The translations under genes and the position numbers were made by a program. Below, one piece after another: positions 26,772 through 40,200 of a stretch of 46,917 nucleotides of DNA. Source of the stretch: Irineochytrium annulatum (taxonomy: Eukaryota > Chytridiomycota > Chytridiomycetes > Chytridiales > Chytridiaceae); NCBI GenBank assembly GCA_027600665.1, contig JADGJL010000081.1:1-46917 (forward strand). The letters are read 5' to 3'. Positions within the stretch are counted from its first letter, which is position 1. Each line of letters begins with the position of its first letter. The notes under the pieces were generated by a model, which did no database searches, was not told the origin of the DNA, and saw nothing but the letters and a program-made list of their open reading frames with translations.

Positions 26772-29700
26772 ATGAGACGGCGGAAACGAAGCCCGAGCCG
26801 CCTATCATCCGCCTCCTCGACGGCTTCGTCGGCGTCGTCCCATCAGATGACAGGGGGAGGACCGACGAAGGTGTCGCAGCCGCAACGAAAAATCCAGCTT
26901 TTTCCGTCTGCGCCGGGCGTGAAGATATCATCCCGGCCTGCTGCACCGCCTCCGAAACATCCGCCGCCGTCGGAGCATGCATCGTCGAAGACGCTGATGG
27001 ACTTCTCGCTTCCGACGATCGATATTGGGACGTTGGAGGACTCCATTTTCGGGCACGTCGCGGCTTTTTCGGCGGCGGCTGCGGCAGCAGCCGATGCGGG
27101 CGATCTGGAGACGAATGTGGGGACGGTGGATGGCAGCAGAGCGCGGTCGGAGGTGTCGGAGAACAGTAGCATGCAATCAAAAGGACCGCATCGCCCGCCG
27201 TCGGAACGGGAGACCATCGACGTGGTGCGGCGGTTCTTCTCATGCCCGTCAGCCATTTCCAATAACGTCGACGATTACAACGAGATTGCACCGACGAGCT
27301 CCGCGGCGGAGACTTTGGTTGACGTGGGTTCCAGTAATTCGTGGGTGGCTGCGGGACAGAGGTACGCATCGCCGAGAAGCTCCGTCCTGTCGGCAGAGAC
27401 AATGGAATCTACCGCGGCGGCCTCGGGCGCGCTATCCGCATATCCGCATCAACGGCAACACGAACAGCCACATCAACAGCCACCGCAGCCTCAACCGCAA
27501 AACTCCTTCATCGGTGTTATACCGACGCGGAGCTCGTCCCTCGCATGGTCTGACGCGGAGGTTGAAGGACTTGGCGTTCGGAACGGGAACGGAGGGATCG
27601 GGCACGTCCTTAATACCGACGCACCGTCGCCACCGCCACGCGCCACGCCGTCCCTGGAACGTCGATATCCACAGCAGCGGCCCGTATACCCGCCAAAGCG
27701 CTGGGAGTCTGTCGACAGGCTTTCATCGCCCACTAGCCCCTCCGCCGTCCCACAGAAACGGTTTTCCTCCAGTGCTCTGCCCACATCATCATCAACATCC
27801 ACAATCACCACTTCATCATCCAATCAACCTCGGTTTTCTCCTGCGCCGTCCGTCATCCAAACGCTTAACCCGGCACTTCCCAACCTTCTCTCGCGCATCC
27901 TACACGAGTTTGTCACGACCGAGCGGACGTACGCGACCGAGCTGTCGCGTTTAATTGAGATCTATTTGCTGCCGATGCGTGGCGCGCTGGAGGAGCGCGG
28001 GCACGACAGCAAATGGAGCCAGTCGGTTGTAGCCGGGTTGTTTTCAAACGTTGAGGAGATCGAGGAGGCTCACCGATGCTTGGTGCTGCCGGCGCTGGAG
28101 GCCGCAGTCTCGGGGGAGGTGTGGTGGGATGGCGAAGAGGCGGAGACCGAGGAGGACCAGCCGAGATCGTCATGGGAGCTCGCGCTAAGCCGGTGGGATG
28201 CGGCCGCGGATGTTGACCTGTCGCTGACCTCCCCAGTTGCGACGGGCGTACCGGACGGGGCCGATGAGGTGGAGGAAGGGAACAGGAGGGCGGGACGTGC
28301 GAGGGGCCGGAGTGCGAACAGACGGAGCGGATTGAGCTGGACAAGCGGGGGCAGGGGGCGCAGGACGGGGAGCGCGGGTTCGTCCGTCGCGAGCTCGGCG
28401 ACGTTCGCCAATAGCTCGGTTGCCCAGCAGGCGTCGTCGGCCGTTGGGTCCGCTACGGTAGACCCGAGGGCGTCCATTGGGTCTTCGTTGATGAGGTTCG
28501 GGTGGTCGATCGGTGCGGGCGCAAGGTCGCGGTCGAGGAACAGGCGATCAGGCGGCGTGGTCGGATCTGTCGTGAACTCGCCCGGGACCGGTGTGGTGGG
28601 CATGGGTTCCTTAGGGGTTGGAATGATGTCTAACGCGGGCACCGCGGTGCTAGGGGAGGCGGACATTGGGCGATCGGTCGCGGCGCTCGCGACGTTCTTT
28701 ATCCGGCTGTGCGGATGCGGCGTAGTCGGGCGTTACGAGCACTATATCGCTAGATTGCAGGGCGCGCAGGCGTTAGCTGTGGAGTTACTGGCGATGGAGC
28801 CTGGGTCGTTGGTGGAGGAGGACGGTGACGAGAGGCTTGCGGCGTTTAAGGAGGCAGCGAGGGTGATGAAGAGGGCCGCGGAGGACCCGAGGCATGCGCA
28901 GATTGGGGTGTTCGGGTATTTGGTGCTGCCGCTGCAAAGGCTGACGAGGTGAGCACCATAGATCGACTTCAGTATAATTATTTAGTCTAATGCTTGCATT
29001 TCAGATATTCCATCATGCTCGACCGTCTGTTAGACTCCATCCCGACGGATGGCGGCGACCTCGTCGAACCGATTACCCGCGAACTAGTCGCCGAGGCTGC
29101 CATCGCCGTCCGTCGCGCCGTCGAGTCCTGCAACGAGGCCACTCGCCGCCAGGAGGCCACCCGTAAGGTCCACCATAACCAGCCTCCTTCCCACAAGCGC
29201 AAAGTCGCATCCCCCGCAGTCTCCCAGCTCTCCATCTCGACCGCGACGACGTGCGCGTCCCCGACGGCGTCCCACCCAGCTTTCATCCCGTCCTCGTTGC
29301 AGAAGCCGCAATCCTTCGTCGCCTCCCCAACTCCGATGTCGCCTCGAGCGTCCGTCGCGACGGAGCATTCATATCAGAGCGTTTCCGCCACATCGCAACA
29401 CCATCGTTCGTGGTTTGGCCGGTTTTCGCACACGAACAGTTCGGCAACGACAGCTCCAACGAGCCCAACGGCGGTCTCGTCGCCGCACTATCACCAGCAG
29501 CAGCCACTTTACCTCCCGACTGCCCCCGTGCGGTGTGAGGGCGGCCTGGCGCTCGTCGCGGACGGGCGAGCGGGAGCTGCGCAGGAGGCGAGGCATTCGT
29601 GGGGTGCGTGGGCTACCGGCGAGTCGCGCGCGGCGGCGGGCATGGCAGGTAGCGAGGGCATTCCCGCCGTCACGGTGCAGAGCTTTCGGGACGGAAGCCT

Positions 29701-30265
29701 AGTGGTCAGGAGAATCTTGGCGGAGGGGTGTAGCGGTCCGGGTGTTTCCTGCGTGGACGCGGAGGAGGCGCAAGTGATTGCGGAGAGGGTTGTTGCGGGT
29801 GGGGGTACGCGGATGCAAAGTAGTGCTGGGGTGGATATGAAGGGGAGGAGCAAGAGTTACCGCGGAGGCGAGAAGGACAAGGCAGGGGCGGGGGCCGGGC
29901 CGTCGTCGCCCGTTGTCGTTATTGAGGGTTTGGCTTATACGGTCGCCGGTTGCGGGGGGTCGGTCGTTATGAGGGTGGTCAAGGGCGGGGCGACGCTTGT
30001 TGCTGGTTTATTTGAGCGATGTTCGGCGGCGGAGGCAGCGGAACCGGAGTTGTCGAAGGGTGGTGGAAAGAACCGCAGGATTCGGGTTGTCGGTGAGATG
30101 TTGAGCGGATCTGGCGGGTCGTTAATGAGCTGCGGACCGGAGTTTGGGGGCGGGATCAGCCGGAGGGCAGGCCCGCTTAGGAAGGGCGATTTAAGGGAGT
30201 TAGTTCTCGAGGGTGATCAGGAGTCGATTGTGGGGTGGTGGAAGGTCCTCAACGAGTTGTGTTGA
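26772..30265 (+). CDS. Rho guanine-nucleotide exchange factor (DH domain) with a large intradomain insert
   Basis: Exons 26772-28948 and 29005-30265 give 1145 residues. The ATG at 26772 (MRRRKRSPSR) was chosen because the open frame upstream starts with GTG and reads like leader sequence. A further in-frame ATG exists at 26493. Residues 1-370 are Ser/Pro/Gln-rich and disordered. The DH domain starts near 372 (LLSRILHEFVTTERTYATEL). It is interrupted by about 185 low-complexity, Gly/Arg/Ser-rich residues. It then resumes (FFIRLCGCGVVGRYEHYI) and ends in the conserved helix FGYLVLPLQRLTRY, which the intron splits. The C-terminal region may be a divergent PH domain, ending in a Trp-containing helix. 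The protein should activate a Rho/Rac/Cdc42 GTPase for polarity or actin control. Confidence 0.82.
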
Positions 30266-30986
30266 TGCTGGCCATTCTCCACAACTTTTTCACTTGCCGT
30301 TATTTAACGGTTTTACAATATTCTCCCCTGAAGTGTTATTCTACCTTCTTTTGTCTTCTATTTATTAATGCAAGTTGGAGTTGGGTTTTCTTGACGAACT
30401 AGGTGAGGGGGTCATGGGGATAATCGTATTCGGTATTTTTGTGTTGAGCGTTCTTCTCTCCTGCACAGTCAAATCACATACACCCGGACCTTGACACTTT
30501 TTTGTTATTTTTAACTCTGTTTTTACATGTTGATCTGATCAGTTCACTTACCTGTTCTTTTTCGTTACTTGCATTGTTTATTTCTTCAATTTTTGCCTTT
30601 AATTTTGCTTTGTTATTTACTTGTGTTATTCTATTTTTTTCCCCAGATTTCGAGCGGGAACTAATGATCGTAAATACATGACTTGATATTAAACATTTGC
30701 AAACGCTTGGAACAAGCATTTCTGCACGAACAACAAGGCTCTCTACCCATCTGCAGCAATTTCTCTTGTTCGGTACACTCTTCATCATTTGTAACTCTGT
30801 TATTTTTTCTGTTCTGCTATTTGATTTAAATACTGGTATGCAAGCTGTCGTTTGTCTGCTAAATTGCCAGGCGATAATGGGGCTTTTGCTCGAAATAACA
30901 AAAGTGAAAAAAAAGAGGTCGTTAGAAACCGCAATTGCGAGACATTTGAAGAAAGCAGGAATGGTGGTCAAAGTTATTCCAAGACC
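30266..30986. other. AT-rich intergenic region
   Basis: This 721-bp region is visibly richer in A/T than the coding flanks, mainly 30290-30960. Open frames on both strands here (for example 30971-30474 on the minus strand) follow the base composition and show no domain. The frame of the downstream RT-like gene stays open upstream to about 30825, so that gene could have an earlier start or exon. Confidence 0.45.
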
Positions 30987-32034
30987 ATGAGCATCCCACC
31001 ATCAACCAACGTCCCCGCGACCACGCCGTTCACATTCGCCGCCATATCAGGAAAAAAGGGCGACCGACTTATTTTAAGCAAGATCGCGGATAAGGTTTGT
31101 CGCGCTGTGTTGTTTAATGTCCTTGTACTCATTGCCCAGCAAGCTTAAGCCACGAACGTCACCTCGACCCGTCGAAAAGGACCATCAGGTCTTAAAGGCA
31201 GAGATGTACTTTGAAGATCACCCGCCGGCGTCCGACGACGCGGCTTTTATGACGGAGTCACTGGAGCGAATGCTTGTGTCCGGCGTCATCGAGCCGGTGG
31301 CCGAGGGCGAGGCGGCCCCTGAAGCGTACGCGTACGCGGCCACGGACTCTAAAGGTATGGTCCCTTTTACAAACTAAAGTTTTGAGCGTAAACGCTAGGA
31401 ACCAAAGGCCTGTACTTTAACTTCACATCCCTCCGCGGCCTCATCCCTGAATCCGTCCACCCGATACCCATTCTCCCCGTATCCGTCTCAACGACCTCAT
31501 CAACGCCCCTACGCTCCGACTTGTCGCTCGCGACTTACGACGCGGCGTGGCCTTTCCCTCTGTCGCTCTCAGACCGGCCCAAGACCGCGTTCGCGACGCG
31601 ACTGCCGGCGGGATCGAGACTCGACGGGAGGTACCGGTTTGTGATGGCGCCGATGGACATGCCCGGGACGGGCGCGGCCGTGCAAAGCCTGCTGGAGGAG
31701 GCGCTGGTGGAGGGGCTGTTGACGGAGGAGGGCGGGTTGGTGGCGGTGAGTTCATTTGCTTTTTTTGGTTTGCTGGAGGAGACTTTTCCGGAGGAGCTAA
31801 TTGTTTATATTATAGGTGCGGCTAAACGAGATTCACGTCCACGGCGACGCGACCAATCCCGAGGATCACATGCGGGTCCTCGCGGAGGTGTTCAAGCGCG
31901 TCAAGGTGTCCGGTATGAGGTTCGCGGCGGACCGATGCCGCTTCGGTATAGATCCGAGAACAGGAGAGGTAGCCGAGGGGCTGTCTTTCCCGCAGAAGAA
32001 GGCGCTGGAGGCTTTTAAAGGCATGATAGGATAG
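30987..32034 (+). CDS. Domesticated Ty3/gypsy reverse-transcriptase-like protein, catalytic motif lost
   Basis: Four exons, 30987-31094, 31144-31354 (start could be 31150), 31399-31745 and 31816-32034, are phase-consistent and give about 294 residues. The order of landmarks follows a gypsy RT. These are LERMLVSGVIEPV (the LL..GIIEPS region), LYFNFTSLRGLIPESVHPIP (normally R.CVDYR.LN...YPLP), PKTAFATR, and YRFVMAPMDM then AAVQSLLEEAL (normally Y.F.VMPFGL..AP..FQ). The YLDDI catalytic motif is replaced by VRLNEI (N226, E227). HMRVLAEVFKRVKVSGMRF with DRCRFG and AEGLS follow. The motif-A Asp may survive as D147. There is no protease, RNase H, integrase or LTR. Intact frames with three normal introns suggest a retained host gene. 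The function is unknown. Confidence 0.72.
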
Positions 32035-32351
32035 AAATGAACAGCGACGACGATTTATTCTCGTAAAGGGCCGAAGAGTCGTTCTAACACGTTGGCTTTT
32101 CAAGCGATGGTGGTAATAGAGTATGATTACAGACGATGTTCTTGTTCACAATATTAATTTATTGGTATCGCGTGCAAACTATGAGCAAGTACAATTCATG
32201 CAAGACAATAAACAAGAATACGTACAGACGATAGTAATATACAATAACTGAAAAAGAAGTCACACCATGGTGGTGATCGCGAGATCGAAACCACCGAGCC
32301 CGTGAAGACCGTGGCCAGGGAGATATATCAAGTCGGGGCGCATACGCGTGC
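32035..32351. other. Convergent intergenic region
   Basis: This 317-bp AT-rich region lies between the stops of the RT-like gene and the coiled-coil gene. No gene is supported, and I see no long terminal repeat or polypurine tract. Confidence 0.5.
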
Positions 32352-32909
32352 TTAGACGGTGCCCTTGACGCGGACGAGCGCGTTCTTGATCTTCGCGAGC
32401 CACTTAGGCGAGCTCCGGGAGTTGGCGGACCCGTTGGTGCTGGTCTTCTGCTTAAATGACGAGTTCGACACGACGGAGGTCACATCGCAGAGCGTCCTGT
32501 CGTTGATGTCGCCGTTGCAGGAGCAATTCTCGTCACCTGCTGAGTCGAACGACAGCATGGATGAGGACCGGGAACAGCAGCGCGGGGAGACGTTGGCGTT
32601 GTCCTGCTGCTGAAGGATAAGGTGCTGCTGCTGGAGGACGATGGCCTTAAGGCTCTCAATCTCCGCAATGGAGGAGTCGAGCTTAGCGCGGAGGTGGGAC
32701 GCGTGGCGGGCCGTGAGGTCAAGGCGAGCTTCGACGTCCATCTGGCGCTTGCGGTGGTAGGCTTCGATGTCGGAGAACTGAGCTTGGATACGGAGGAGCG
32801 ACTGGGCCGTGTCCCAAGAATCCCTCTTGTAGAACTGGGCCTCTTCCTCGAGCTTCAGAAAGACGGCAGAGAGGTCACTCGGGCTTGAGGGTGTGGTTGA
32901 GGTAGCCAT
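32352..32909 (-). CDS. Small coiled-coil protein
   Basis: A single-exon frame of 185 residues starts MATSTTPSSPSDLSAVF. Residues from about 13 to 105 are helical with heptad-like spacing (FLKLEEEAQFYKRD, LLRIQAQFSDIEAYHRK, SHLRAKLDSSIAEIESL) and end in a Gln-rich stretch. A Ser/Cys-rich linker (RCCSRSSS, NCSCNG) follows, then a basic C-terminus (PKWLAKIKNALVRVK) that could be an amphipathic helix. No enzyme motif is visible. A scaffold or oligomerising role is likely but unproven. Length, ATG and codon use all support a real gene. Confidence 0.65.
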   Translation of the reverse strand: MATSTTPSSPSDLSAVFLKLEEEAQFYKRDSWDTAQSLLRIQAQFSDIEAYHRKRQMDVEARLDLTARHASHLRAKLDSSIAEIESLKAIVLQQQHLILQQQDNANVSPRCCSRSSSMLSFDSAGDENCSCNGDINDRTLCDVTSVVSNSSFKQKTSTNGSANSRSSPKWLAKIKNALVRVKGTV

Positions 32910-33962
32910 GTCAGAAGGTTGGAGGCTGTCGCGGTGCGAGTATGTAGCGGCGATGGAAGCGAAGGGATGTAGCGACGGCTAGTTATTGGCGTGAGGGAGG
33001 GATGAGGCTAGCAGGGTAGCTTATCAAGAGGAGGAGGGGATCAAATGAATTGCTTGCAGGACGGCCGGGTCGCCAGCCCGTTTATACCATCTCAGGGAGG
33101 CGGTTGTTGGCCCGACCGGTCAGAAAATAGCTGGAATCCAGGCTCGAGCCTCGGATCGGCCCAGGCCGATATTTGGTTTAGTCAGCTAGCGCCGATACGG
33201 CGATCGGGGCGGTCTCCAGAAATAGCGACGGCAAGACGATGTCGGGAAGCCGAAAGGCGGCAGCTTAGGACCCTGGCGAGCTCTGGCTGAACGCCACGCG
33301 AGGGCCAGATCCGCGGCTGATCTCGTACTAATCCTCGTCCGGATTTGCGAGACTTGAGCGATCCAGCTGGTTTGAAGGCCAATGCGCAACTTTGACACTG
33401 CCATCAACAAGGGAGCGCTTTCAGGAACCCACCTAAACTCACGCGTTTGCAGCCATACCGTTATTTTTAGTCTCATTGACCTAACGCGGACTATTCGGAG
33501 CCATAAGGACCTTCTGCATATGAAACTGGCTCGATCTCGCCCATTGGGTACGCAGTAAGCAAAAAAAGTTATCCTGGGAAATGTTGCCGACAAAATCCGA
33601 AGGCGATCTGAAGGAAATCACCGGACCGTGCTGACCAAGAAGAACCTGACGAAGGTCGATTGAAGGCAGTTTGTCAGTGACGAAGTTGATAATTACAACA
33701 CTGTATTTGTAAATGCCAAAGCAGGTGTTTAAAGCAGAAGCGAAGACGACGCAATACGATAATTTTAAGCAAATGTTCGTTCAGACTGTACGCAGAGTGA
33801 ACCAATCCACCACCGCACGGCATTAACAAGCTACATGAACAAAGGATCAAATCCAGAAAAACCCTCATGGTGGGCAATTCCCAAAAACCCAACCGTCTTC
33901 CCGCCTCCATAAAAAGTCACCGCAAAAAATACACACAACCATGCCCCTTCAAGCGACGATAA
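32910..33962. other. Intergenic region
   Basis: This 1053-bp region holds the promoter of the coiled-coil gene (GC-rich, with TTTATACC at about 33079) and the 3' end of the dioxygenase gene. A 135-codon minus-strand frame (33593-33186) is Arg/Ser-rich, lacks domain content and is not called. Confidence 0.45.
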
Positions 33963-35626
33963 TCAAGCCGAGGTCACATCCTGACCCGTGAACTTCGCCT
34001 TCAGCTGCGCTACCTCCCTCTCGAGAATCCTGGCCTGGGCGTCGCCGCGGGCAGTGAGCTCCTGCGCGAGCGCGCGGTGGTAGGGCGTCAGGCGCTCGTG
34101 GTCGATCTTGGCGCCGACCTCGACCATGGCGTTAAGGACGACGGAGAGCTGGTTAGGGAGCCAGGTGGTGATCGGGCTGCCGCCGGTCGCGACGGGGTGG
34201 GACGAGTGCTTGATGATGTACCTAAGAGAACATTTGGTAAGCAATCTTTGCATGAATGAAAAGGATGTGAGGGAAGTACTTACTCCTTGGTGAAGTTCCA
34301 GTGGCGGCCACGGAATTCCCTGACCTGGTCGAGGAGGGCGAGGTACAGGACGGCGGAGTTGGAGTCGGCGGCAGCGAACTGCCTGACGTTGAGCTCCGCG
34401 GCCCTCCTCTCGAGGTACGCAAGCCACTGGTTGTGGTTCGCGGGTCTGTAGGACCTGAAGTCCCTGAGGATGTCCGTGAGCGGGTTGATGGGCATGCGGT
34501 CAGTGAGCTGGAGGAGGTTGTCGCATGTCGGGATGATGGAATCGTTCGCACCGGACTCGCCTCGGTAGAACGTGGCCTGGTCCGAGACGCCCTCGTAGAC
34601 GACGCCCTTGGGGAACATGGGCTGGTTCTTGGTGCCCATGATGAAGGTGCGGAACTTGAGGTAGTCCTCCGTGGCCGAGTGGGCCCACATCGTGTCCATG
34701 GTCGAGTTGATCTTCTGCATCGTCGTCAGCATGCCCTTCATCTCCTCGTCCAGACCGGCGCGGTCGTTGCGCTCGACGGCCGCTAGTGTGCCGAGAGTGG
34801 ACTTGACAAGGTCGCCGGTATGTGCGACCATAGCCACGTGGACAATGATGAATCCGTGCTCAGAGGGCATGCCAGAGAACTTGCGGATGAGCTCCATATT
34901 TTCGTACTGGAGGCCTTGGGAGGGGTCCTTCCGCTTGTAGTTGTAGAGGGCGTAAGACTGGGCATACTCCATGAACTAGTGACGTAAGATGGGTAAATGC
35001 ACGCGCCATGACAAGAATGCAGGAGAGAATCAACTCACGGGCTTGGAGCCGATCTTCTCGGAGATCTTAGCAAGAGGTACGGCCAGGTTCTTGGGAAGAA
35101 CATCCCTGCCGAGCCCGTACTCGCCCTTCTTCTTGTTCAAAATGTCACAAGGCTCAAGAAGGTATGCCGAGGCAGCGAAGGTGTAGTCGCGGAACAAGGC
35201 TGTCATTGAAGTGAAACGTCAGTCGTAAGCCTCAAGGCGGCATGCAACCATTGCCAACTCACCAGTCAGCACCCGCTGGTCCGTAATCGAGTCCACGTCG
35301 ATAAGCGGAAGCTCCTTGTTGACGGCATCACCAAAGGTCCCCTTCGCAAGCAGGCCTTCGGACCCATCCTCCTGGATCACAGACATCCGAGTGAGCAAGC
35401 TCTCGAGCGGCGCAAACTTCTCCGGCAGCTCTACGAGTGGGTCCTGCCGGGGAAGGAAGCCGTTCCGTGTGCCGACGATGAACTGCGGCTGGTTGTTTTG
35501 GTCCTCGGCCAGCGAGGCGAGAGCCCGGCGAGGCACGCGTGGGGTTGAGTAGGAGCGGGCCTGGTTGATCATCGCCGCCCGGGAAACGAGCGACGGCATG
35601 CGGGATGCGGGACGGAGGAAGAGCAT
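33963..35626 (-). CDS. BNA2: Indoleamine 2,3-dioxygenase
   Basis: Exons 35626-35263, 35199-35039, 34975-34284 and 34221-33963 (phases 1, 0 and 2) give 491 residues. Family hallmarks are YLKFRTFIMGTKNQPMFPKG followed by VVYEGV, FYRGESGANDSIIP, and LVDxLR-like LLDQVREFRGRHWNFTKEYI, where H400 is the expected proximal heme ligand. HPVATGGSPITTWLPNQL follows. The enzyme opens the indole ring of tryptophan to N-formylkynurenine, the first step toward NAD. The first 30 residues (MLFLRPASRMPSLVSRAAM) are basic and lack acidic residues, so mitochondrial targeting is possible. That would be unusual for a family normally described as cytosolic. An alternative start at M10 would shorten but not remove this segment. 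Confidence 0.95.
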
Positions 35627-37228: not shown

Positions 37229-40200
37229 TCAGTAAGCCCTGAAAGACGAATCCTCCGCTCTCTTCATCACAACGTCTCTCTGCCATGCCCGCCACGCGTT
37301 CAACACCTTCTTCTTCAATGATTTCTCTTGAAATGTCTTCACGTAAATCTAATTTGAGCACGTAAGTAACCAGGTTCTCCACACGAAATGCCAAAGACTT
37401 AAGACCATCTTCCTATGCCACTCAAAGAGCCGATTTCCGAACCAACGTTTGAGCACGGACCGCAGCAAGAGCCTCTCCCTCGTGGCGTCGGCCTGATCCT
37501 CGAGGAAGGCGACGGCGGCATTCCTGTTAGCCCAGTCCCTAAACACCCGAAACTCCAGATTTAATCTATACGCACGGACTGCCATCGAAGCAGAATGCCA
37601 ATAGAGCAATGTCTGCATTAATTTAATAAGTAACGATAGTGGCAAAGTATCAAAATGCGCACCTTGCGTTTCAAAGCGGCATTCGTTCGAAGCGCTTCTC
37701 TCCTAGCCAGCGTCTCCTTCCACCGCGAGAAAAGCCGGCGGCGAATGCAACGTTCGTAAATGACGGCAGATATGCGGAGAGTCGATGCCTTGCGCCTCCA
37801 ACTCCGAAGATATCTCGCCAAGATGCATCGCTTCAGGGTTGCGTTGACGAAACGGTTAAGCTGCACCGCTCGCCTCCATTCATGAAAAGTCTCTTCCTTC
37901 AGCTTTAACCCACGCCAGTCCCTCAGCGAGACTTGAGCATTCGTCGAAAAGGCACTATCGCGGAGATGGTGAGCAAGAAGAAGCCGCTCCCTTTCCCGAA
38001 GGGACGATTGAAGCCGCGCGTATCGAAACCATGCTACCAATTATTAAAATTTCTTCAGGTCAGCTTCTCCAGTTACCTCGGAATCGCTTCCGCATCAGCA
38101 CCTCCATAACTACAGACCGCAACGTTTCCACTCCTAAAGTAACCCGCATTCGATGCCTGCACTGTAAGACCCATGCCGCAAAGCCGGAGCGTAAAGTGTT
38201 TCTGTTATTGACGACGAGTGCCCGTTGGTGCATCCGCCGCAGCTTCAGCGCCTGCCGCCAGGCCATCAGGGTGCTCCGATATATTCTCAAAAAACTGTAA
38301 ACGCCAGCCTTTACTAGCAACTGCCGTCGAAGGACCTTTTCCGCCGCATGGATCGTCCATTGCACAAAAACCTTTCGAACTTGGAAAGTTATGGCCGCAT
38401 CCGCGGCTTTAGCTGCGTTCAGCATGTTGAAGTGGACCCTCGAAACCCAGCACCCAAAAGTTGAGGCCAGAAGTCCGATTTTTCTTCTCCTCAGCATTTG
38501 ATTAAGCGTTATAGCCCGCAACCGCTGTAAATGAGCTCTGTATCTCCAGCCCGAAAAATAATTCCTCATCATCGACGTGCTCGAAATAGCGGCCGCCCTT
38601 TCGGCGCGCTCCTTTGCTATTCGGAAGGCCTGGCACCATCTTTGAATTGCGCACCGCTGAAGCATTGAGTTTCGGGTTGATTCTATGACCCCTGCGAACA
38701 AGACATTCAGCGGGTTCAAATACAAAAAAAATAAGTGTCTCACCACTATTGCATTCTGTTAGTGAACCCACAAAATCACCCGCACAATACCTGTTGACTG
38801 CCAAGTATCTCATTTTTGAGCGCAACGTAGAGTAGTGCACAAACCGCCCTTGCCAATGCTGAAAGACGTCAAACTTAATCGCGTGGCGGCATTTTACCCT
38901 AAAAACCGACGAGCACAGCAATGCATTCTTATAACTTGCAAAATCGTTCAAAGCTGCCTGAAGCTTCCGACGATTTGAACGGACTTCTTCCCCTCTTCGC
39001 TTCCAAGTCCTTAGGAAGCGTCGCAGCATCGACGCTCTCTCAAATTGGCGCGTCGCTGTATGAACGCTCGTGACGTTTTCTTTAAGGGCGCGAAGGGCAA
39101 CATTAGCTCGATGCACCTGCCGAGTATCAGCGCGCAAAGCAGTAACATAGACAATATCCGAATGTACCTGTCTTGCGCGCAGCTTCGCAATCCATAAATG
39201 GACACAGCCTTTAAGCTCCCTTGCTTTCCAACGCTGGGATGCTATCAGCATCGGCCGCGACCACTTCACGGAAGCGTGAGCTCTCCAACACGAAAAGCAC
39301 TTTTTCATAGTCGATAAAGTCATGAAGGCAACCGCGGCCTTAGCGCGCTCTGCTGCCGTGACTAATGCCTGAATCCATATCTTGACGGCGCACCGAAGAA
39401 GCAACGAATCCCGAGCTGATTCGATTGCCCCTTCAAGAAAACGTGTTCGTTAGTGGCTAATGAAACCATCGCCAGAGATATTCTGTCTTACCCCTGAAAC
39501 ATCGTGTTAGCAGACAAAATAAATAGACAAGGCAAACCTGTTCTGTTCAAGGTATCTGATTCTTGCACGAGTCGATGAATGGTGCAAAAATCGTTTGCAC
39601 CAGTGCTGACCCACGTTAGAAGAGCTTATTTGCGGGAATATCGAGTTACATTTAATGCAGAGGAGCATAACCGAAAATTTCGTCGTCGAATAACGGCGTC
39701 AAAACCTGCTTCGAGCCGTCGACGTTTCGCACGGATAGCCACAGCCAATCGTTTCCATCTTAAGAATGGCTGCCGAAGCCGAGATTTCCTTTCAAATTCG
39801 CTTGTTGCCATGCGGACACTAAGGGCGTTCTCTTTAAAGGCCCGGATAGCCGTACTAGCTCGGCTAAACTACAAAAGTCAGCAACAAAACGGTAGTTAAG
39901 CATCTCAGTACCCGTCTAGATCTTAATTTTGCAATCCATAAACGAACAGAGAGCGTAATCTGCCTCGCTCTCCACTGCTCCAATGCAAACGACAACTCCA
40001 TGCTCCGCAACGAGATGTAGGCGGCACGACCGCTCCATAACGCAAAGCACTTCCTCAACATCGATAAACTCGAATGAGTAGTCGCAAGTTTAGCACGCTG
40101 CCTTGCTGTGCGCATGGCCTGGATCCATAATCTGATCGCGCCCCGAAGATGTAAGGAGTTTCGTGTTGATTCCATAGCACCTTCAAAACATGCTTAAGTT

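What the first reader, a model, noticed from the sequence alone, without database searches (positions are those of the whole stretch)
30987..32034. Intron-bearing host gene made from a Ty3/gypsy reverse transcriptase with the YxDD motif destroyed
Sequence shows the RT landmarks in order (GVIEPV, FNFTSLRGLIPES, PKTAFATR, YRFVMAPMDM, DRCRFG, AEGLS), with VRLNEI exactly where YLDDI should be. The frame is open across four exons with three phase-consistent introns, and protease, RNase H, integrase and LTRs are absent. A dead transposon would collect stops. An active one would keep the two Asp and lack introns. I infer exaptation for a non-enzymatic role such as nucleic-acid or protein binding. I know of no described fungal gene of this form.
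Basis: partly seen in the sequence, partly recalled or inferred. Interest (0 to 1): 0.88.

Follow-up and report, generated by a model that had tools for sequence, protein, structure and literature searches.

The report
Dead reverse-transcriptase palm in fungal gene
A probable fungus with a swimming stage appears to carry a single-copy, intron-bearing gene made from a piece of a retrotransposon's copying enzyme whose catalytic residues are lost; it looks like a real gene, but no relative was found in the searches made, so its use to the host is unproven.

Summary
The observation largely holds. A 291-residue product can be read from 30987-32034 (+). Its C-terminal half (residues 148-264) is homologous to Ty3-type reverse transcriptase (profile score 65; highest of 200 controls 26.8). 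At the YxDD site it reads RLNE, and the first catalytic Asp is Ala or Ser in the best alignments, so it should not polymerise. The N-terminal half is collinear with RT but not significant alone. Intron 3 is well supported, intron 2 fairly; intron 1 and exon 1 are uncertain. Codon usage of exons 2-4 is like that of neighbouring long ORFs (0.157 bits per codon; 2000 shuffles at most -0.029), GC3 is 0.76, and inferred introns have 0.37-0.47 GC. It is single-copy, with no LTR-like repeat or other Ty3 domain found. An open model alone is weak evidence (19 of 126 other stretches allow one). No relative was found, so selection is untested, and structure prediction was uninformative. Best reading: a host gene built from a polymerase-dead RT palm, perhaps a protein-interaction module or inhibitor of resident Ty3 elements. 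A dead RT domain is known in mammalian RTL1, so this is a new variant of a known kind.

The parts
30987..31094 (+). possible exon 1 (36 codons), uncertain
   Evidence: open, ATG in a good start context (by eye); codon score -0.144 bits/codon, lower than 12 of the 13 neighbouring stretches
31095..31143 (+). possible intron 1 (49 nt; donor GTTTGT, acceptor AAG), uncertain
   Evidence: a GTTTGT donor and an AAG acceptor also appear in introns inferred by paralogue comparison in a tandem gene pair (read by eye); GC 0.47
31144..31354 (+). exon 2: RT fingers-like segment (FMTESLERML..GVIEPV)
   Evidence: codon score 0.24 or 0.22 in frame, GC3 0.69; collinear with Ty3 RT but not significant alone
31355..31407 (+). 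intron 2 (53 nt, or 44 nt ending at 31398)
   Evidence: exons 2 and 3 are in different frames; GC 0.40; the 53-nt version keeps an ungapped RT alignment (by eye)
31408..31745 (+). exon 3: from LYFNF through KTAF to YRFVMAPMDM
   Evidence: residues 148-218 (31530-31742) match the Ty3 profile alone, score 40.1; codon score 0.094 in frame, but antisense 0.105
31476..31562 (+). 29-codon stretch where codon usage does not tell two frames apart; includes the place of the first catalytic Asp
   Evidence: -0.27 in frame and -0.28 two bases on; the parallel frame reads DLRRG, not significant at the RT register
31746..31815 (+). intron 3 (70 nt, GTGAGT..TATAG)
   Evidence: GC 0.37; the splice joins exon 3 to exon 4 at the YxDD strand without a break in the RT alignment
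31816..32034 (+). exon 4: VRLNEI (YxDD site) to CRFG, then a tail that does not match RT, and stop
   Evidence: residues 219-291 score 28.8 alone, just above the highest control 26.8; codon score 0.10 or 0.07, GC3 0.74

Best explanation
A single-copy protein-coding host gene whose C-terminal half derives from the palm of a Ty3-type reverse transcriptase. The copy lost the rest of the element, all three catalytic Asp in the best alignments, and the thumb, connection and RNase H parts, and gained spliceosomal introns. The product should not polymerise. It most likely works through protein contacts of the remaining palm fold. The most specific form of this is that it associates with RT or Gag-Pol of the genome's own Ty3 elements and hinders them, as truncated Gag pieces do for Ty1. 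Shown by computation: RT ancestry of residues 148-264, loss of the active site, host-like codon usage of exons 2-4, intron-like gaps. Inferred: expression, selection, fold, function. I give about 0.85 to a real protein-coding gene, 0.65 to a retained host function, and 0.2 to inhibition of resident Ty3 elements.
For: Homology: hhalign against a profile of Ty3 RTs (121 rows: the genome's own and the 120 listed of 2915 hits) gives probability 96.5 and score 70.3; controls reach at most 26.8 (60 whole-protein shuffles, 80 half-protein shuffles, 60 sampled window ORFs). HMM score is 20.7 bits against 2.9 for the best of 1000 shuffles. Smith-Waterman score against the genome's own Ty3 ORF is 95; 500 shuffles reach 69 at most. 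Active site: 22 of 75 strongly conserved Ty3 columns are kept, 50 differ, 3 are gaps; D-D becomes N-E and the first Asp is not Asp. In S. cerevisiae Ty3 the D213N change ends polymerase activity and all triad mutants tested were lethal for transposition (PMC5371799, passages). Gene-likeness: exons 2-4 score 0.157 bits/codon and 2000 shuffles at most -0.029; 12 neighbouring stretches score -0.0 to 0.30; GC3 0.76; inferred introns 0.37-0.47 GC. One copy, no LTR-like repeat, no other Ty3 match in the window above chance.
Against: No relative in any collection searched, so no dN/dS or synteny. The open frame alone is weak evidence. The N-terminal half has no significant RT signal alone. Exon 1 scores poorly and antisense of exon 3 scores as high as sense (0.105 and 0.094; the best antisense frame of 12 host stretches is 0.04). 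In 31476-31562 the frame is ambiguous. A 13th neighbouring stretch (38600-39440) scored -0.286 and was dropped from the codon model. Unspliced exons do not stand out in a six-frame profile scan: exon 4 has E 0.085, exon 3 0.79, and an unrelated antisense ORF 0.076. Pfam gives no family. AlphaFold pLDDT is 35 without and 41 with an alignment, exon 3 only. Nothing bears directly on function.
Confidence: 0.62

Rival explanations
1. A decayed Ty3 fragment (pseudogene) that by luck, GC-rich sequence and generous choice of introns can be read as open.
For: With at most 3 introns, 19 of 60 simulated decayed RTs give an open model at equilibrium GC 0.60, 9 of 60 at 0.50 and 1 of 60 at 0.39, the last near the GC of local introns and intergenic DNA. 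Frame ambiguity in 31476-31562. No relatives found.
Against: Codon usage and GC3 (0.76) of exons 2-4 are like those of live genes. Simulated decay ends at GC3 0.42-0.60, though the simulated start was itself only about 0.60, so a GC3-rich element that died recently is not excluded by this. Base composition drops in the inferred introns. RT alignment runs collinear through two inferred splice joints.
Confidence: 0.22
2. A host gene that kept only a short RT-like palm piece, the N-terminal part being host or newly formed sequence (a chimera).
For: Residues 1-147 alone score as shuffles do (19.5 against 22.3), and the tail after CRFG lies outside the RT match.
Against: The best hit of exon 2 alone lies at the collinear RT place (57-83 of the profile), and the whole protein aligns from residue 71.
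Confidence: 0.12
3. A live retroelement RT of unusual lineage.
For: RT homology.
Against: The D213N equivalent ends Ty3 polymerase activity (PMC5371799, passages). One copy only. No LTR-like repeat and no protease, RNase H or integrase match found; only 317 and 721 bases to the neighbouring long ORFs.
Confidence: 0.02

Closest known systems
Ty3/gypsy (Metaviridae) reverse transcriptase, including copies in the same genome (L001, C540)
   Same: palm motifs KTAF, the following hairpin strand and P, the strand at YxDD, the H of the following helix, C-x-F, in order
   Different: D-D is N-E, first Asp lost; 50 of 75 strongly conserved columns differ and 3 are gaps; no RNase H or integrase match found; introns; single copy
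RTL1/PEG11 of placental mammals
   Same: domesticated Ty3-type gene with an RT domain described as likely catalytically inactive (PMC11011659, passages)
   Different: RTL1 keeps capsid, protease and RNase H as well; this one is a short RT-only piece with introns
Drt2 and p22/p18 of yeast (Ty1 restriction factors)
   Same: short retrotransposon-derived proteins in a fungus; Drt2 is called an endogenised restriction factor (PMC12530519, abstract)
   Different: capsid-derived, poison the capsid lattice; here RT-derived and untested
Fission-yeast Cbp1 family and Cbt proteins
   Same: fungal genes domesticated from mobile elements; 4 of the 6 Cbts keep a DDE or DDD triad (PMC10085805, passages)
   Different: derived from pogo DNA transposases, not RT
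RVT genes
   Same: domesticated RT genes (PMC5718144, passages)
   Different: separate long RT branch with a large loop 2a; catalytic state and copy number not looked up here

Membership tests
Ty3/gypsy reverse transcriptase domain | sequence homology over the palm | tested here: met
   score 65 for residues 148-291, 200 controls at most 26.8
Ty3/gypsy reverse transcriptase domain | homology over the fingers | tested here: inconclusive
   residues 1-147 score 19.5, 40 shuffles up to 22.3; place is collinear
Ty3/gypsy reverse transcriptase domain | catalytic Asp triad | tested here: not met
   YxDD site reads RLNE; first Asp is S146 in MAFFT, A148 in the ungapped reading by eye
Ty3/gypsy reverse transcriptase domain | curated Pfam match | tested here: not met
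   no Pfam family at E up to 10; the PF00078 search of the genome lists 15 matches, none on C884
Ty3/gypsy retrotransposon | LTRs, protease, RNase H, integrase, several copies | tested here: not met
   the query set was chosen for RT, so integrase coverage is limited
Domesticated retroelement gene | single copy without transposon ends | tested here: met
Domesticated retroelement gene | coding signal of the host | tested here: met
   0.157 bits/codon for exons 2-4; exon 1 does not show it
Domesticated retroelement gene | conserved in place in relatives under purifying selection | not testable with these tools
   the genome has no relatives in the held set (note); no homologue found
Domesticated retroelement gene | spliced transcript and protein | not testable with these tools
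   no RNA data
RTL1 | capsid plus protease plus dead RT in one protein | tested here: not met
   product of about 291 aa with no Pfam match
RVT genes | loop 2a insertion, own RT branch | not tested
   only passages seen

The most novel reading that the evidence does not exclude
A stand-alone, intron-bearing host gene consisting of little more than a Ty3-type RT palm with all three catalytic Asp lost, kept by a zoosporic fungus as a protein-binding factor, possibly a decoy subunit that limits its own Ty3 elements.
Probability: 0.35. Interest if true: 0.68.

Novelty: new variant of a known kind. Interest (0 to 1): 0.45.

Why it matters
Most domesticated LTR-element genes that I know of descend from gag, integrase or envelope (recalled, from no call). 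An RT-only gene with a dead active site would show that the RT palm itself can be kept as a non-enzymatic fold, and would give a fungus with few Ty3 copies a possible RT-based brake, which is testable in the yeast Ty3 assay. If it is only a lucky open relic, it is a useful caution: open multi-exon models around dead RTs are not hard to draw in GC-rich sequence.

Tried and rejected
Relatives: protein searches with the product (5232 candidates, none at E up to 10) and with exon 3 (24 candidates, none); viral-contig scans with exon 3 and exon 4; a genome-contig scan with exon 3. None found a relative. The two nucleotide collections are weak tests: viral contigs gave no relative of the genome's own Ty3 RT either, and genome contigs holds bacteria and archaea. 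The protein database does hold eukaryote records (one search lists named proteins of Calcarisporiella, Riccia and Closterium), so that absence is informative, within the limits of its 5-residue-word and length filters.

A compensated frame change in 31476-31562: the frame two bases on reads DLRRG, like the first-Asp motif. At the register that fits RT it scores -35.5 against a shuffle mean of -42.0, s.d. 6.6 (best of 14 registers in each of 2000 shuffles); its best register (-27.5) lies between the 95% and 99% points but is two residues off the motif; the model frame scores -36.1 there. The frames tie in codon usage. Left open.

Openness as proof of constraint: rejected (note that simulated decays were allowed a stop in the last 200 bases, shuffles and other stretches in the last 60). 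The stop count without introns overstates the case.

Structure: exon 3 alone, pLDDT 35 without and 41 with RT rows; no fold search was run on such models. The whole spliced product was not submitted because the tool counts only letter-for-letter window products as the window's own.

Closer kinship to retroviral RT: two loop lengths fit HIV-2 RT without gaps up to the YxDD site (E 0.35); too weak to use.

Organism by rRNA: searches gave no answer. A radial-spoke gene points to a flagellated organism.

Full report
What is there. The window is contig C884 of a 26.9-Mb genome in 1082 contigs. The genome holds a radial-spoke gene (best match E 9.5e-51), so the organism very likely has flagella. Together with a Zn-cluster-like and other fungus-like neighbours (read by eye, no family search) I take it for a zoosporic fungus. 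Between a long ORF ending at 30265 (+) and one ending at 32352 (-) lies the finding. A product of 291 residues can be read from four pieces, 30987-31094, 31144-31354, 31408-31745 and 31816-32034.

Is the RT likeness real? Against a profile of 121 Ty3-type RTs (the genome's own and the 120 listed of 2915 hits) the product scores 20.7 bits; the best of 1000 shuffles scores 2.9. hhalign gives probability 96.5 and score 70.3 over residues 71-264. Among 200 controls (60 whole shuffles, 80 half shuffles, 60 sampled window ORFs) the highest score is 26.8. Split up, residues 148-291 score 65, residues 148-218 of exon 3 score 40.1, residues 219-291 (exon 4 and one residue) 28.8, and residues 1-147 only 19.5, no better than shuffles. 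So the palm half is homologous, and the fingers half only by position. Results the other way: the unspliced exons do not stand out in a six-frame profile scan of the window (E 0.085 and 0.79, with 0.076 for an unrelated antisense ORF), and Pfam finds nothing.

The active site. In 75 columns conserved at 90% or more among the Ty3 RTs, the product keeps 22, differs in 50 and has gaps in 3 (columns of the uncertain N-terminal half included). The YxDD site reads R-L-N-E. The first Asp falls on Ser146 in the MAFFT alignment or on Ala148 if the stretch up to KTAF is aligned without gaps (by eye). A nearby Asp151 could take its place only with a three-residue gap. In S. cerevisiae Ty3, D151N and D213N abolish polymerase activity, D214E keeps some in vitro, D213E is partly tolerated, and all tested changes were lethal for transposition (PMC5371799, passages). 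The product has the D213N and D214E equivalents and lacks the first Asp in the best alignments, so it should be dead as a polymerase.

Is it a gene? Exons 2-4 score 0.157 bits per codon on a codon model from 12 neighbouring coding stretches (long ORFs picked by eye), and 2000 base shuffles of the exons score at most -0.029. The 12 stretches score -0.0 to 0.30 when each is left out of the model. A 13th stretch, 38600-39440, scored -0.286 and was dropped. GC3 is 0.76. The inferred introns have 0.47, 0.40 and 0.37 GC and the flanks 0.37 and 0.43. The genome's Ty3 pieces have GC3 of 0.60-0.71 in four readings (L001, L014, L016, L017; L015 was read on the wrong strand and is left out); L018 has 0.57, and two RT frames of another kind, L005 and L007, have 0.75. 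So GC3 alone does not part host genes from transposons here. Intron lengths and site types resemble introns read by paralogue comparison in a tandem gene pair in the window (by eye). Weak points: exon 1 scores -0.144; antisense of exon 3 scores as well as sense (0.105 against 0.094), where the best antisense frame of the 12 host stretches is 0.04; and in 31476-31562 two frames tie.

Openness. Without introns, none of 1800 simulated decayed RT sequences (three base compositions, four levels of decay) kept a 291-codon frame open. With up to three introns of 40-80 bases allowed, 1, 9 and 19 of 60 did at equilibrium GC 0.39, 0.50 and 0.60, as did 3 of 60 shuffles and 19 of 126 other stretches of this gene-dense window; with up to two introns the numbers are 0, 1 and 7 of 60, 0 of 60 and 9 of 126, and the real region is open with two. 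So the open frame counts for little alone; codon usage, composition and collinearity carry the case.

Surroundings. The stretch 30266-32351 was found once in the genome, and the product has no other match there (only best candidates are scored). In 28500-35000 no direct repeat is longer than 28 bases. tblastn with 120 Ty3 proteins and the genome's own transposon ORFs finds only the RT exons above chance (best E 1.8e-6; best elsewhere 0.004). The genome has a few Ty3-type RTs: C540 without stops in the RT frame, C206 with one, pieces on C1039 and C922, and a weaker match with three stops on C30.

How it may work. With only about 28 residues after the palm, no thumb or RNase H fits, and conserved fingers positions are replaced, so strong nucleic-acid binding is not expected (inference). 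Ty3 RT works as an asymmetric homodimer on its substrate (PMC5371799, passages), and yeast uses element-derived fragments to poison Ty1 assembly (PMC12530519, abstract). A dead palm that joins Ty3 RT or Gag-Pol and hinders it is therefore the most specific testable role; I give it 0.2. A protein-interaction role unrelated to Ty3 is as likely.

Known or new. RTL1 of mammals carries a likely inactive RT (PMC11011659, passages), so a dead domesticated RT is not new in kind. A short RT-only gene in a fungus was not met in seven literature searches bearing on it (listings, with passages of three of the papers), which cover open-licence papers only. I file it as a new variant of a known kind, with selection unproven.

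Noticed in passing
window:31476-31562: The frame two bases on from the model reads a peptide with DLRRG, loosely like the first-Asp motif of Ty3 RT; not significant at the fitting register, but codon usage cannot exclude it.
   Followed up: partly
L018 (G000:C455:9563-10084): A second, very different RT with a 528-aa open frame and an intact MDD motif followed shortly by IKGP.
   Followed up: no
L014 (G000:C206:5373-6233): Ty3-type RT with one stop in an otherwise long frame; the C540 copy (L001/L013) has none in the RT frame.
   Followed up: no
window:3574-11046: Two tandem paralogous genes, peptidase-like by eye, with conserved exons and diverged short introns, some with an unusual donor (GTTTGT) or AAG or GAG acceptors (by eye).
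   Followed up: partly
window:31530-31840: Spacing of the hairpin after KTAF and of the helix before the YxDD site fits HIV-2 RT without gaps, while the genome's Ty3 RT needs gaps of 7 and 4 residues.
   Followed up: no
G000:C1052:36272-38313 (L027): Radial-spoke gene, marking the organism as flagellated.
   Followed up: no
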